Below, in pieces: positions 31,477-38,850 of a stretch of DNA of 38,850 nt. The DNA is from Armatimonadota bacterium (lineage in GTDB: Bacteria > Armatimonadota > Hebobacteria > GCA-020354555 > CP070648): assembly GCA_020354555.1 (NCBI GenBank), contig CP070648.1, positions 646,328 to 685,177 of the forward strand. The letters are read 5' to 3'. The notes under the pieces were generated by a model that saw only the letters and a list, made by a program, of their open reading frames with translations, did no database searches and had not been told where the DNA came from. The position numbers and the translations under genes are program-made. The first letter of the stretch is position 1; each line of letters starts with the position of its first letter.

Positions 31477-31705
31477 ATGCACGGACCTCGTGAGGTGATA
31501 CGGGCGTGGTTGATGTCCCTGCGAGTCGATGCCGTTCCTGCGCTGCGGGAGTCGGCCTCGGCTTTCGCTGCTGTCCTCACGGCTTGGCGAAGGTCGGCCC
31601 GCTCTTGCCTCACGAGTTTCTTCCGAGCACCCGCACATTGCCCGGCAGCGCGGTCTCGACGACGGTCGCTGTTGCGGCGAAGGCGCCGATAGGTTATCGG
31701 TCGGA

Positions 31706-31754
31706 GCGAAGTACGAGCGGACAACGGACACCCGTACTTCGCCAGGCGTCACGC
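31706..31754 (+). promoter_or_regulatory. Stem-loops in the leader of the propeller gene
   Basis: GCGAAGTACG (31706-31715) pairs perfectly with CGTACTTCGC (31733-31742) around a 17-nt loop. A second small hairpin, GGCG-TCA-CGCC, ends about five nt before the AGGAGG ribosome site (31759-31764). The position just ahead of the start suggests a role in translation or mRNA stability. It matches no riboswitch class I know. Confidence 0.4.
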
Positions 31755-31768
31755 CGTCAGGAGGAAGG

Positions 31769-34654
31769 ATGATGAGATTCGCCATTCTGGTGCTTTGCTG
31801 TTCGGTCATCGCGGCTCTGTGTATCACGCCGGCGCTAGGGGGCCAGGAGGTGCCGGTCAGTGTGACGTCCGCGACCGAGGCCTTTCCGCGGGTCTTCGGC
31901 GACACCGTGGTGTGGGGGGAGTATGGCAGCACCGGCTACGACGTCTATGCCAAGAGCCTGCGCACGGGCGCAACCACCGTCGTCGCCGCGGCGCCGGAGA
32001 GCCAGCAGCGCCCGGAGATCTGGGGCAGTCGGATCGTGTGGGAGGACTTCCGCAACGGGGATCCGGACATTTACATGTACGACCTGGCGACGGCGACGGA
32101 GACCGTGGTCTGCGGCGATGTTGCCCCCCAGTACCATCCTGCCATCTTCGGCAACCGCGTTGTCTGGCAAGACTACCGCAGCGGCAACTGGGACGTCTAC
32201 ATGTACGACCTCGCCGCGGGCGTCGAGACGCCGATTTGCACAGCGGCGAGTGATCAAGCGGATCCGGTGATCTGGGGCCATCGTATCGTGTGGCGCGACA
32301 CGCGCAACGGCAACTGGGATGTCTACATGTACGACCTCGCGACGGCGGCGGAGACGCCGATCTGCACGGATCCGACGACCCAAGCGGGGATCGCGATCTT
32401 CGGCGATCGCATCGTGTGGGAGGACCTGCGGAACGGCAACTGGGACATCTATATGTACGACCTGATGACGGCGACCGAAAGTGCGGTCTGCGTCAACCCG
32501 GCACAGCAGTATGACCCCGAGATCTGCGGCGACCGCATCGTGTGGGCGGATCAGCGCAACGGCAACATGGATGTCTACATGCACGATCTCACGGCGGATG
32601 CGGAGACCCAGGTCTGCGGCGACTCGGCCGACCAGTACAATCCGTCCATCTTCGGCGATCGCATCGCATGGCAGGATATGCGCAATCCCAGCATGGACAT
32701 CTACATGTACGACATCGACCCGTCATGGGGGGAACTGCAGATCAGCGAGCTTGTGACTCACGAGCGCTTGCCGTCCATCTCGGGCCACCGCGTCGTGGAG
32801 GAGGACTACTATTACGGCTTCTCCGATACCGACATCTGCATGTACGATCTGCCGAGCCGCACGTTCACCCACTGGTGGCGGTCGCAGCGCCAGTGCTATC
32901 CCGTGATATGGGATACCAGAATTGCGTGGCAAGACAACGGGGCGGGGAACTGGGACATCTACATGCGCGACCTCGTCAGCGGGAGCGTGAGTTCAGTGTG
33001 CACCGACGCGGCGGATCAGACGCGGCCGGCGATATTCGGCGACCGCGTGGTGTGGGAGGACGCGCGCGGCACCGACGTTGACATCTACATGTACGACTTG
33101 ACGGGGGGAAGCGAAAGCCCGATCTGCACCGCGACCGGCGACCAACTCAACCCGGTCATCTGGGGCGACCGCATCGTATGGCAGGACTACCGCGCAGGCA
33201 ACGGCGACATCTACATGTACGACCTGGCGACTGCCACCGAGATGCCCATCTGCACGAATGCCGCGCACCAGGAGCACCCCGCCATCTGGGGCGACCTGAT
33301 CGTGTGGCAAGATCTGCGCAACGGCAGTTGGGACATCTACATGTACGACCTGGCCACCGGCACCGAGACGCCGGTCAGCACGGCGGCGGCCGGCCAGACC
33401 AGCCCCGCTGTGTGGGGCGACCGCATCGTGTGGTCTGACGCGCGCAAGGGCAACTGGGACATCTACATGTACGACCTGGCGGCGGGCGCCGAGATGCCGA
33501 TCTGCGCGGCGACCGGGAACCAGGGGCTGTGCGCGATCTGGGGCGACCGCATCATATGGGAGGACTATCGCAACGGGAACGCCGACATCTACATGACGAA
33601 ATGGCCCGCGGCGTATTTCGGCAACATCGCGGGGCAGGTGCGCGTACGCGGCACGACGACCAACATCGAGGGCGCGCGCGTGGAGCTGTACCGCGACAGC
33701 CTTCTCAAATACACAGCATCGACGAACACCAACGGTCTCTACAATCTTCAGGAGGTAGCGGCCGGGGCCTACGTAGTGAAGGTGTCCGGGACGGGCTTTG
33801 TCACGCAGACGAAGGCCGGCGTCGTGATCGCGATCGGCGATACGACATACGTCAACTTCAATCTGACGGCGTCCGGGCGGCTCATGGGCCAGGTGCGCAT
33901 CCGCGGCACGACGGTGAACCTCGAGAACGCCGGCGTGTGCGCGTATCTGAACGGCCTCGAGCACGCGCTGACGTCGACCGACAGCAACGGGATCTACGTC
34001 ATTGACACCGACCTGCCGACGGGCGAGTACATGATGACCTGCGTCAAGCCCGGCTACGAGCGGCAACTGAAGGCCGGCATTGCCGTGACCTCGGGCGCGA
34101 CGACGTACGTCAACTTCAACCTGCGGTGGGTGGCGGTGAAGGGGCAGGTCAAGGATACGGGCACGGGCCTGCCGCTGATCGGCGCGGCGGTGGAGATCCG
34201 CGATGGGGATACCGTCATCGCCAACGCGACGACCACAGCGCCGTACGGCGTGTACGAGATAGACACCGCGCCCGCGCCGGGCACGTACACCGCGATCGCG
34301 CGCAAGGCCGGTTACGTGCGGCAGACGAAAACCGGCGTCGCGGTCAGCTACGGCACGACCGCGTACGTCAACTTCAACCTGCCGCGGTCGGGCACGCTCA
34401 GGGGGCAGGTCAAGGATAAGGTGGCGAACACGCCGCTCGTCGGGGCGACGGTGGTCGCGCGCAAGGACGGCATCGTGTGGGCGACGGCGACGACCGGCGC
34501 GCCGTGGGGTATCTACGAGATGGACAGCGACCTGCCGGCGGGGACCTACGTCGTTGGTGCGAGCAAAGCGGGCTACCTGGGTCAGACCAGGAAGGACATT
34601 CCCGTCACTGCGGGCGCGACGACGTACGTCAATTTCTTCCTGCAGCCGCAGTAG
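31769..34654 (+). CDS. Secreted protein with 14 beta-propeller blades and four regulatory-like beta domains
   Basis: The ATG at 31769 (or the adjacent one at 31772) follows AGGAGGAAGG and starts a signal peptide (MRFAILVLCCSVIAALCITP). Fourteen tandem repeats of about 42 residues follow (about 38-615), each with a core like GDRIVWQDYRNGNWDIYMYD. They resemble TolB/WD40-like propeller blades known from secreted proteins of Methanosarcina and some bacteria. At DNA level the unit is 126 bp, spread over 31895-33605. Blades 7-9 are the most diverged. Fourteen blades would suit two seven-bladed propellers. The rest (about 620-961) consists of four carboxypeptidase-regulatory-like beta domains of about 85 residues, each ending in TTYVNFNL-like strands. 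No catalytic motif or membrane anchor is seen. A role in surface binding is plausible but unproven. Confidence 0.85.
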   Translation: MMRFAILVLCCSVIAALCITPALGGQEVPVSVTSATEAFPRVFGDTVVWGEYGSTGYDVYAKSLRTGATTVVAAAPESQQRPEIWGSRIVWEDFRNGDPDIYMYDLATATETVVCGDVAPQYHPAIFGNRVVWQDYRSGNWDVYMYDLAAGVETPICTAASDQADPVIWGHRIVWRDTRNGNWDVYMYDLATAAETPICTDPTTQAGIAIFGDRIVWEDLRNGNWDIYMYDLMTATESAVCVNPAQQYDPEICGDRIVWADQRNGNMDVYMHDLTADAETQVCGDSADQYNPSIFGDRIAWQDMRNPSMDIYMYDIDPSWGELQISELVTHERLPSISGHRVVEEDYYYGFSDTDICMYDLPSRTFTHWWRSQRQCYPVIWDTRIAWQDNGAGNWDIYMRDLVSGSVSSVCTDAADQTRPAIFGDRVVWEDARGTDVDIYMYDLTGGSESPICTATGDQLNPVIWGDRIVWQDYRAGNGDIYMYDLATATEMPICTNAAHQEHPAIWGDLIVWQDLRNGSWDIYMYDLATGTETPVSTAAAGQTSPAVWGDRIVWSDARKGNWDIYMYDLAAGAEMPICAATGNQGLCAIWGDRIIWEDYRNGNADIYMTKWPAAYFGNIAGQVRVRGTTTNIEGARVELYRDSLLKYTASTNTNGLYNLQEVAAGAYVVKVSGTGFVTQTKAGVVIAIGDTTYVNFNLTASGRLMGQVRIRGTTVNLENAGVCAYLNGLEHALTSTDSNGIYVIDTDLPTGEYMMTCVKPGYERQLKAGIAVTSGATTYVNFNLRWVAVKGQVKDTGTGLPLIGAAVEIRDGDTVIANATTTAPYGVYEIDTAPAPGTYTAIARKAGYVRQTKTGVAVSYGTTAYVNFNLPRSGTLRGQVKDKVANTPLVGATVVARKDGIVWATATTGAPWGIYEMDSDLPAGTYVVGASKAGYLGQTRKDIPVTAGATTYVNFFLQPQ
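31895..33605 (+). repeat. Tandem 126-bp coding repeats
   Basis: Fourteen in-frame units encode the propeller blades. The stretch around GACATCTACATGTACGACCT recurs nearly unchanged in most of them. Blade starts fall at about 32023, 32149, 32275, 32401 and 32527, an exact 126-nt period. Such similarity allows gain or loss of blades by recombination. Confidence 0.8.
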
Positions 34655-36310: not shown

Positions 36311-38850
36311 ATGATGATGAAGCGCGTTGGTGAGATCTTGCGGCGGCCGCTGTTGGTGCCGCTGGCGATTGCGCTGGCGATGGTGTCGGTTGCGGCCGCA
36401 GTCGGCCCGCGCCAACTCGGCAGCGATACGGAGATCAGTCCGCTGGAGACGCAGGTGCTCGGGCAGTCGCAGTGGCTGAGCGGGAGCACGGCGTCGCTGC
36501 GGGTTATCGTAAGCGATCATGACAGCGGCGACCCGCTGCGCGCGTGGGTGCGCATCGGCGCGCGGCCCCAGCCCACGGGCGAGGAACAGCCGGCGCCGCT
36601 GACCGCCTTGCACGACGGGCGCACCAACGAGCGCGGCACCCTCGACGCGAGCTTCGCTGTGCCCGACCTTGAGCCGGGGATGTACGAGCTCGTCGTCCAG
36701 GTCGGCGCGATGCCGCTCGGGACGGACACGATCAAGCAGCCGCTGCGGATCACCAAGCGGGCGGAGGTGCTGCTGACGACGGACAAGCCGATGTACCAGC
36801 CGGGGCACGTGATCCACCTGCGCGCGCTCGCGCTGCAGCAGCCGCAACGCCTGCCGGCGGCGGGCGAGAACGTGACGTTCGAGATCGAAGACGCCAAGGG
36901 CAATAAGGTCTTCAAGAAGTCCCTGGCGACGTCGCGCTTCGGGCTCGCCAGCACCGACTTCCAGCTCGCGAGCGAGCTGAACATGGGCCGCTGGACGGCG
37001 CGGGCGATTCTGCCGCACGGCACGGCGGAGAAGAAGTTCACCGTCGAGCGCTACGTGCTGCCGAAGTTCAAGGTCGTCATCTCGCCGGACAAGTCGTTCT
37101 ATCTGCCGGGCGAGACCGCGACGGGCAAGATTCAGGTGGACTACATCTTCGGCAAGCCGGTGGCGGGCGGTGAGGTGCTGATTGCCGCTTCGACTTTCGA
37201 TATCGGTTGGAGCGAGATCGCGGAAGTTCATGGGCGCACGGATGACAACGGGACGTATCGGTATTCCATCGAACTCCCCGAGCAGTTCGTCGGCCAGCCG
37301 CTGGAGCAGGGCAAGGCGCTGGCGAAGCTCGATGTCGAGGTGACCGACCGCGCCGACCATACCGAGCACGCAGCGAAGACCATGCCGGTAGCTCAGGATC
37401 CCATCAACATCGTTGCGGTGCCGGAGAGCAGGACGCTGCGCCCCGGCCTGCCCAACACGATTTACGTGGTGAGCGGCTATCCTGACGGCAGTCCGGCGCA
37501 GTGCCGCATCCGGGTGACCGCCCCGACGGATGTCCATGTTGGCGATCGCGTGACGCGCATCATCGCGCAGGGCCTGGCGACCGACGAGTTGGGCATTGCC
37601 GACATCACCTTCACGCCCGACGGCCCGGTGGCCATCACGGTGTCCGCCGATGACGGCAAGGGCAACACTGCGACGCGCGAGATTCCTCTCGACGTGGCGG
37701 GGGGCGAAGATGCAATACTGCTGCGGACGAGCGAGGCAATCGCGCGCGCCGGCGACAAGGTTGACCTGACCGTGCTGTGTACGCGGCAGACCGGGACGGT
37801 GTACCTCGACGCGGTGCGCAACGAGCAGACGATGATGACGAAGTCGCTCGATCTCAGCGGCGGCAAGGCGGCGATGTCGCTACCTATGACGCCGGACATG
37901 GTCGGCACGGTCGAACTGCACGCCTACAAGATACTGCCAAGCGAGGACATCATCCGCGACACGCGATTGATCTACGTCAAGCCGGCGGACGACCTACGGA
38001 TCGCGATCACGGCGGACAAGGAGACGTATCGCCCGCGCGAGCAGGCGCGGCTTGAGTTCGCGATCACCGACCAGGAGAATCATCCCGTGCTGGCGGCGCT
38101 CGGCGTGGTGGTCGTGGACGAGGCGGTGTACGCGATGCAGGAGATGCAGCCCGGGCTCGCTGAGATTTACTTCACGCTCGAACGCGAGCTGATGGAGCCG
38201 CGGTACGAGATCCACGGGCTGCGGCCGGCGGGGGTGGTGCGCGGCGAACTGCCGATCGAGAAGAGCAACGTGGAGCTGCAGCAGGAGGCGGCGCGGGTGC
38301 TGTTCGCGGCGGTGGAGCGGCCGGAGCGGATCAGAATGCGCGTTAACACATACCAGCAGCGCGTCGCGGAGATGATGGAGAAGTGGCTTGAGGCGCTGGC
38401 CCGCGATGCGGAGAAGATCAACCGGGCCCTGGAACGGTACCGCCAGGCGCACGGGCGCTACCTGGATCCGAACGCCGACCTGCAGATTCTGGTCCACGAA
38501 GGCCTGCTGAAGAGATCCGACCTCAGGGATAACTGGGGCCGGCCGTACCGCGTGCGGTTCCGCCAGGCCAACGCGTGGCTCGAAAGCCGCGGACCCGACG
38601 GGCGGTGGGATACGGCGGATGACCTGCCGGGGGCGCAACGCTGGGTGCGAGGCGGCAGAGCGATCGGCCGCGGCATGCCCATGGAGCAGCTGGGAGTGGT
38701 GGTCGAGGACGCTGCGATGCTGCGCCCCCCAGCCGTCCTCCAGGCAGGCAGGATGGAGAAGGCGGTGGCTGCGGAGGCCGCTCCTGGCGCAGCGGCGGCG
38801 GAGCCGGTGCTCGTGCGCCAGTACTTCCCGGAGACGATGTTCTTCGAGCC
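36311..38850 (+). CDS. Alpha-2-macroglobulin family protein with GspG-like insert (3' end outside window)
   Basis: The frame is open from the triple ATG at 36311 to the window end (846 codons). GAGGAG precedes the start. The signal peptide (about residues 10-31) suggests export. Macroglobulin MG domains follow, with typical segments such as TTDKPMYQPGHVIHLRAL (MG2) and RYVLPKFKVVISPDKSFYLPGE (MG3-MG4). VVVDEAVYAMQE near 600 marks the region before the bait segment, and VRQYFPETMFFE (834-845) opens the A2M domain. Between them (about 678-775) lies a helix and loop region with DNWGRPYRVRF and SRGPDGRWDTADDL. It closely resembles the C-terminal domain of type II secretion pseudopilin GspG. Bacterial macroglobulins trap foreign proteases in the periplasm. 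The thioester site would lie beyond the window, so it cannot be judged. Confidence 0.9.
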   Translation, partial: MMMKRVGEILRRPLLVPLAIALAMVSVAAAVGPRQLGSDTEISPLETQVLGQSQWLSGSTASLRVIVSDHDSGDPLRAWVRIGARPQPTGEEQPAPLTALHDGRTNERGTLDASFAVPDLEPGMYELVVQVGAMPLGTDTIKQPLRITKRAEVLLTTDKPMYQPGHVIHLRALALQQPQRLPAAGENVTFEIEDAKGNKVFKKSLATSRFGLASTDFQLASELNMGRWTARAILPHGTAEKKFTVERYVLPKFKVVISPDKSFYLPGETATGKIQVDYIFGKPVAGGEVLIAASTFDIGWSEIAEVHGRTDDNGTYRYSIELPEQFVGQPLEQGKALAKLDVEVTDRADHTEHAAKTMPVAQDPINIVAVPESRTLRPGLPNTIYVVSGYPDGSPAQCRIRVTAPTDVHVGDRVTRIIAQGLATDELGIADITFTPDGPVAITVSADDGKGNTATREIPLDVAGGEDAILLRTSEAIARAGDKVDLTVLCTRQTGTVYLDAVRNEQTMMTKSLDLSGGKAAMSLPMTPDMVGTVELHAYKILPSEDIIRDTRLIYVKPADDLRIAITADKETYRPREQARLEFAITDQENHPVLAALGVVVVDEAVYAMQEMQPGLAEIYFTLERELMEPRYEIHGLRPAGVVRGELPIEKSNVELQQEAARVLFAAVERPERIRMRVNTYQQRVAEMMEKWLEALARDAEKINRALERYRQAHGRYLDPNADLQILVHEGLLKRSDLRDNWGRPYRVRFRQANAWLESRGPDGRWDTADDLPGAQRWVRGGRAIGRGMPMEQLGVVVEDAAMLRPPAVLQAGRMEKAVAAEAAPGAAAAEPVLVRQYFPETMFFE

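What the first reader, a model, noticed from the sequence alone, without database searches (positions are those of the whole stretch)
36311..38850. Alpha-2-macroglobulin with a GspG-like domain at the bait-region position
Between the DEAVYAMQE segment and the FPET motif, where proteases normally cut the bait region, the protein carries about 95 residues like a type II pseudopilin C-terminal domain (DNWGRPYRVRF, then RGPDGRWDTADDL). A folded domain with a possible calcium-type loop in place of a flexible bait could change how the trap is triggered.
Basis: partly seen in the sequence, partly recalled or inferred. Interest (0 to 1): 0.65.

Follow-up and report, generated by a model that had tools for sequence, protein, structure and literature searches.

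The report
Bacterial macroglobulin with pseudopilin-like bait domain
A bacterial relative of the blood protease trap alpha-2-macroglobulin carries a small calcium-loop domain borrowed from a secretion-system protein, set just before the stretch that proteases are expected to cut; the arrangement recurs across many phyla and parallels the extra domain of animal complement proteins.

Summary
Between the DEAVYAMQE and FPET segments lies a GspG (T2SS major pseudopilin) globular domain, window 38348-38632. The window sequence alone scores below Pfam's cut-off, but 65 of 76 homologues match T2SSG (best 5e-9). A family profile finds only GspG among PDB sequences below E=0.01, AlphaFold gives pLDDT 91-98 across it, and the top Foldseek hits are GspG crystal structures. 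The three side-chain calcium ligands of GspG 3G20 are kept in 75, 69 and 75 of 76 sequences. The prepilin signal and membrane helix are missing, so it is not a pilin.

The domain does not replace the bait. A 40-118-residue disordered, hypervariable Ala/Gly/Pro/Met-rich tail still lies between it and the invariant plug motif (RxxFPET). The domain therefore sits where complement C3 carries its anaphylatoxin domain.

The gene looked truncated because of a scaffold gap. Its C-terminal half, with thioester GCFEQ, lies elsewhere in the assembly, joined by an exact 141-base overlap. The architecture occurs in 72 of 291 genomes of the phylum and in about ten phyla by record title. I judge it a new variant of a known kind. 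How the domain acts is inferred, not shown.

The parts
36311..38850 (+). A2M gene, N-terminal 846 codons; continues beyond the window at G000:C1:2967057-2969252 (-), full length about 1532 aa
   Evidence: exact 141-base overlap between the two contig ends beside N gaps
36311..36400 (+). hydrophobic N-terminal export segment (signal peptide or signal anchor), no lipobox
   Evidence: hydropathy peak 2.44; sequence MMMKRVGEILRRPLLVPLAIALAMVSVAAA
36767..37036 (+). MG2 domain
   Evidence: PF01835 E 1.2e-22
37049..37270 (+). MG3 domain
   Evidence: PF17791 E 9.6e-8
37724..38137 (+). A2M_BRD Pfam region (MG5/MG6 part)
   Evidence: PF07703 E 2e-13
38117..38215 (+). linker (LNK)-equivalent helices DEAVYAMQEMQPG...PRYEIH, most conserved stretch (76% mean pairwise identity)
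   Evidence: equivalence to LNK inferred from PMC9352918
38348..38632 (+). GspG-like (T2SSG) globular domain: long helix, LVxxGLL, DxWGxPY, beta strands, calcium loop
38591..38623 (+). calcium loop GPDGRWDTADD (matches GxDGx(5)DD, PERCAL motif of PMC3396595)
   Evidence: ligands D117/T122/D125 of GspG 3G20 aligned and conserved 75/76, 69/76, 75/76
38633..38806 (+). disordered hypervariable tail, proposed true bait
38807..38836 (+). alpha-prime-NT plug VLVRQYFPET; R and F positions of human A2M R732/F735 invariant in 76/76
   Evidence: PMC9352918

Best explanation
This is an exported, thioester-containing alpha-2-macroglobulin of the animal-like type. A GspG globular domain, stripped of its prepilin helix, was inserted (probably once) between the linker region and the bait. 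Proposed mechanism: the domain folds around a Ca2+ ion and resists proteases. It spaces and presents the disordered Ala/Gly/Met-rich tail, which is the real bait. A protease cuts the tail; the plug (VRxYFPET) retracts from the MG2-MG3-linker channel; the trap collapses and the GCFEQ thioester captures the protease. The domain stays on the N-terminal fragment, limiting productive cuts to the tail, as the anaphylatoxin domain holds the equivalent place in C3. Shown here: domain identity, position, calcium-ligand conservation, disordered fast-evolving tail, invariant plug and thioester motif. Inferred: calcium binding, cleavage in the tail, the spacer/shield role.
For: Complete A2M architecture MG2-MG3-BRD-[GspG]-A2M-TED-receptor domain. 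Family profile is closest to human A2ML1, CD109, A2M and C3 (1e-51 to 1e-48); the C3 beta chain aligns to query columns 41-549 and the C3 alpha chain picks up at alpha residues 80-88, query 778-785, just past the 77-residue anaphylatoxin domain, so the GspG domain occupies the anaphylatoxin interval (domain length from general knowledge). Foldseek of a 980-residue model gives CD109, A2ML1, C4b, C3 (E to 7.5e-46). GspG domain. Calcium ligands: with PMC3396595. Plug residues invariant 76/76 (PMC9352918). GCFEQ in all 73 homologous frames that reach the thioester. Tail 47% identity, 20% indel columns against 81% and 0.5% for the domain; dN below dS for the domain in all 17 pairs. Single-origin pattern: A2M-borne domains are one side of a branch, SH-aLRT 99.
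Against: No experiment on any member. The window's own T2SSG score is sub-threshold. Calcium binding is read from motif conservation. The tail's role as bait rests on disorder and fast evolution, which also fit an unconstrained linker. The spacer/shield role is one of several that fit. The 980-residue model is partial (no TED) and its contacts could not be inspected.
Confidence: 0.55

Rival explanations
1. The GspG domain is a docking or localisation module that tethers the trap to the type II secretion or type IV pilus machinery, or lets the protein be secreted by it.
For: GspG is the major pseudopilin; 27 of 31 genomes examined have a T2SSG hit above the family cut-off.
Against: Those hits occur with or without the A2M. 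G015 (98% complete) carries the A2M form but its best T2SSG hit is only E 0.007. The pseudopilus-building hydrophobic helix is missing. No T2SS genes recur beside the A2M.
Confidence: 0.15
2. The domain is a releasable fragment, like C3a: two cuts free it and it acts as a signal or effector.
For: Same topological position as the anaphylatoxin domain; compact and conserved fold.
Against: A single tail cut leaves it attached to the N-terminal half; the upstream linker is conserved and predicted helical with no evident second bait; no known receptor; fold unrelated to anaphylatoxin.
Confidence: 0.08
3. The domain is a calcium switch: it is ordered and shields the bait only at high Ca2+, so the trap becomes sensitive when calcium falls.
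For: All three side-chain ligands nearly invariant; calcium-free PulG misfolds in that region (PMC6692295).
Against: Conserved structural calcium is equally expected without any switching; nothing here addresses physiological calcium levels.
Confidence: 0.12
4. Neutral insertion: a hitch-hiking domain without a role of its own, tolerated because bait regions accept almost any sequence.
For: Human A2M works after replacement of its bait with Gly/Ser (PMC9352918).
Against: Retained across about ten phyla with invariant residues D168, G189, D198 of the aligned region and dN below dS in all close pairs.
Confidence: 0.1

Closest known systems
Complement C3/C4/C5 (anaphylatoxin domain)
   Same: A2M-superfamily body; a folded domain between linker and alpha-prime-NT plug; the profile aligns on both sides of the anaphylatoxin interval
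   Different: The inserted fold is GspG-like rather than the small helical anaphylatoxin; a 40-118-residue flexible tail follows; bacterial
Human A2M / A2ML1 / CD109
   Same: Closest by sequence profile and fold; plug R..F and thioester region conserved
   Different: No GspG domain; thioester GCGEQ in human A2M (general knowledge) vs GCFEQ here
Bacterial type I A2M (E. coli ECAM/YfhM)
   Same: Bacterial thioester A2M
   Different: Far weaker profile match (4.5e-9 vs 4e-51); no lipobox in the window protein; no recurring pbpC-like neighbour; GspG domain added
GspG / PulG / EpsG, T2SS major pseudopilin
   Same: Globular fold, DPWG and GPDG..T.DD calcium loop
   Different: Lacks prepilin cleavage site and hydrophobic N-terminal helix; separate branch in the tree
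Other two A2Ms of the same genome (L137, L138)
   Same: A2M thioester proteins
   Different: GCTEQ/GCIEQ thioesters, no GspG domain at the bait position

Membership tests
Alpha-2-macroglobulin superfamily | MG2, MG3, BRD, A2M, TED, receptor-binding domains in order | tested here: met
   all above Pfam cut-offs over the two halves of the gene
Alpha-2-macroglobulin superfamily | internal thioester CxEQ | tested here: met
   PFGCFEQTSS in L030; all 73 homologues that reach it have CFEQ
Alpha-2-macroglobulin superfamily | alpha-prime-NT plug residues equivalent to human R732 and F735 | tested here: met
   76/76 each; importance of the residues from PMC9352918
Alpha-2-macroglobulin superfamily | protease-triggered trapping | not testable with these tools
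   needs protein
T2SS major pseudopilin GspG | T2SSG globular domain | tested here: met
   window alone is below the gathering score
T2SS major pseudopilin GspG | calcium ligands D117, T122, D125 | tested here: met
   D 75/76, T 69/76 (+5 S), D 75/76 (ligands from PMC3396595)
T2SS major pseudopilin GspG | prepilin signal and hydrophobic N-terminal helix | tested here: not met
   no hydrophobic window (max 0.98) anywhere in the bait interval; hence a GspG-type domain, not a pseudopilin
Bacterial type I A2M (ECAM) | lipoprotein anchor and pbpC neighbour | tested here: not met
   no lipobox in the window protein's N-terminus as read; no recurrent neighbour gene in the homologous loci
Complement C3-like with anaphylatoxin domain | anaphylatoxin fold | tested here: not met
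   domain-level profile and Foldseek hits are GspG/type IV pilin only

The most novel reading that the evidence does not exclude
A widespread lineage of animal-like bacterial A2Ms independently evolved a complement-like layout in which a Ca2+-dependent pseudopilin domain gates access to, or productive cutting of, the bait; a sister lineage turned the same scaffold into membrane-embedded, anti-sigma-linked protease sensors.
Probability: 0.2. Interest if true: 0.82.

Novelty: new variant of a known kind. Interest (0 to 1): 0.62.

Why it matters
Folded insertions at the A2M bait position were, as far as I know, typified by the complement anaphylatoxin domains. A second, unrelated fold in the same place, conserved across bacterial phyla, offers a natural test of the plug-in-channel trigger: it separates the folded insert from the cleavable bait. 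It also shows a pseudopilin domain used outside secretion, with its calcium site kept.

Tried and rejected
Assembly chimera as source of the insert: rejected, since the same insert is in many independent genomes. Truncated gene: rejected, the end is a 100-N scaffold gap and the rest lies at C1:2967057-2969252 with an exact 141-base overlap. Conserved gene neighbourhood (pbpC, T2SS): nothing recurrent; the commonest cluster was in 5 loci. Literature: no paper in the open library joins macroglobulin with a pseudopilin domain; one candidate (PMC12485934) concerns an unrelated cage. The genome was not available as a file. First pattern for canonical GspG sequences missed most because the loci were not all in one orientation; redone on both strands.

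Full report
Observation. The window lies at G000:C1:646328-685177. The frame from ATG 36311 encodes an A2M N-terminal half with MG2, MG3 and A2M_BRD. RGPDGRWDTADDL). On this sequence alone Pfam T2SSG is sub-threshold (12.6 bits against 21).

The missing half. Just past the window is a run of 100 N. Residues 800-846 recur at C1:2969115-2969255, beside another N gap, with an exact 141-base overlap. That contig encodes the rest: A2M domain, TED and receptor-binding domain and the thioester motif PFGCFEQTSS. The intact gene would be about 1532 residues. The scaffold order is therefore a misjoin, not a truncation; close relatives have single frames of 1544-1612 aa.

Homologues. A search of 41 genomes found the same protein in many; those aligned keep the insert, apart from the sister form described below. 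The genome-contig scan used only the flanking motifs as patterns and gave 306 relatives, 80 kept, although ranking by similarity to the query could favour insert carriers. Record titles name Armatimonadota, Hydrogenedentota, Planctomycetota, Poribacteria, Acidobacteriota, Cloacimonadota, KSB3, TA06, Chloroflexi, Eremiobacterota and others; these are MAGs and titles may be wrong. In the window's phylum, 72 of 291 genomes have a match to the region profile; a few of the weakest are partial or of the sister type. From the relatives' titles (G003 = L053, G012 = L057) the phylum is Armatimonadota.

Identity of the domain. T2SSG matches 65 of 76 homologues, best 5e-9. A profile of the region finds eight PDB sequences with E<0.01, all GspG. 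The AlphaFold model of the window sequence has pLDDT 91-98 from region residue 111 to 200; Foldseek's best hits are GspG of E. coli (3g20) and V. vulnificus (3gn9), then a type IV pilin. The E-values there are modest because the query includes half of MG6 and a disordered tail.

Calcium loop. In 3G20 the ion is held by D117, T122 and D125 side chains and two main-chain oxygens, and the motif GxDGx(5)DD was named PERCAL (PMC3396595). The aligned positions here are D 75/76, T 69/76 (5 S) and D 75/76; D198 of the region is 76/76. Calcium-free PulG misfolds near this site (PMC6692295). Binding is therefore expected but not shown.

The real bait. After the domain comes a tail of 40-118 residues (median 69): 18% Ala, 16% Gly, 8% Pro, 7% Met, no Cys. 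It is predicted disordered in both models. In 17 close pairs the tail is 47% identical with 20% indel columns, the GspG domain 81% with 0.5%, the linker 97% and the plug 98%. This is what a bait next to a conserved trap should look like. The plug motif that follows has the residues equivalent to human A2M R732 and F735, studied in PMC9352918, in 76/76 sequences.

Position relative to complement. A profile of 58 longer sequences matches A2ML1, CD109, A2M and C3 at 1e-51 to 1e-48, against 4.5e-9 for E. coli YfhM. The C3 beta chain aligns to columns 41-549 and the alpha chain from alpha residues 80-88 onward to columns 778-957, so the GspG domain (646-743) lies in the interval of the anaphylatoxin domain. 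Foldseek of the 980-residue model (pLDDT 83, pTM 0.72) gives the same families. The folds of the two inserts differ.

Origin. In a tree of 76 A2M-borne and 27 canonical GspG domains the two sets are separated by one branch (SH-aLRT 99; 91 columns, so inner forks are weak). One ancient gain is the simplest reading, not a proof. The other A2Ms of the same genome have no such domain.

Mechanism. I favour a protease-resistant, calcium-stabilised spacer that presents the tail and restricts productive cuts to it. The trigger itself (plug retraction, channel collapse, thioester exposure) is taken from animal family members (PMC9352918). A T2SS docking role is weakened by G015, which has the A2M form without a clear canonical GspG. 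Release as a C3a-like fragment would need a second cut for which I see no site.

A sister form. Four A2Ms with the same CFEQ and FPET signatures (L140/L049, L132, L174, L175) carry hydrophobic segments at the bait position, about four in three of them, the last ending in a pilin-like string resembling ILFPVFxKAREKAR. Three have an N-terminal zf-HC2 finger (E 1e-12 in L175; just above cut-off in L174; below it in L140) followed by a membrane helix, and the same three have an ECF sigma factor gene directly upstream. They look like anti-sigma factors with an A2M ectodomain, possibly protease sensors. This is outside the finding but may matter more.

Novelty. No paper in the open library describes the combination; most subscription journals and preprints are not covered, so absence is weak evidence. 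I file it as a new variant of a known kind.

Noticed in passing
L049/L140 (G002:C159), L174 (G218:C490), L175 (G232:C47), L132 (G006:C41): Sister A2Ms with a multi-TM module ending in a pilin-like helix at the bait position; three have an N-terminal zf-HC2 anti-sigma finger plus TM and an ECF sigma gene immediately upstream (L049:10430-11059 -, L174:1386-2144 +, L175:7074-7688 -). Possible A2M-based protease sensor controlling a sigma factor.
   Followed up: partly
L041:1758-2819 (G029:C200): After the GspG-like domain this homologue carries a dockerin-like duplicated calcium-loop segment (Pfam Dockerin_1 E 0.0069 in one member) in the bait interval.
   Followed up: no
L086:7001-7864 (same gene as L039): Tail contains a collagen-like run GPQGPVGPRGPEGPPGPK next to the plug, possibly a bait for collagenase-type proteases.
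   Followed up: no
window 38850 / L002:4679-4778 and L030: Scaffold misjoin in the assembly: contigs joined by 100 N although the A2M contig end overlaps another contig end by exactly 141 bases.
   Followed up: yes
window 31529-34654: Large protein of repeated WxDxRNGxxDIYMYDL beta-propeller-like units followed by carboxypeptidase-regulatory-like repeats.
   Followed up: no
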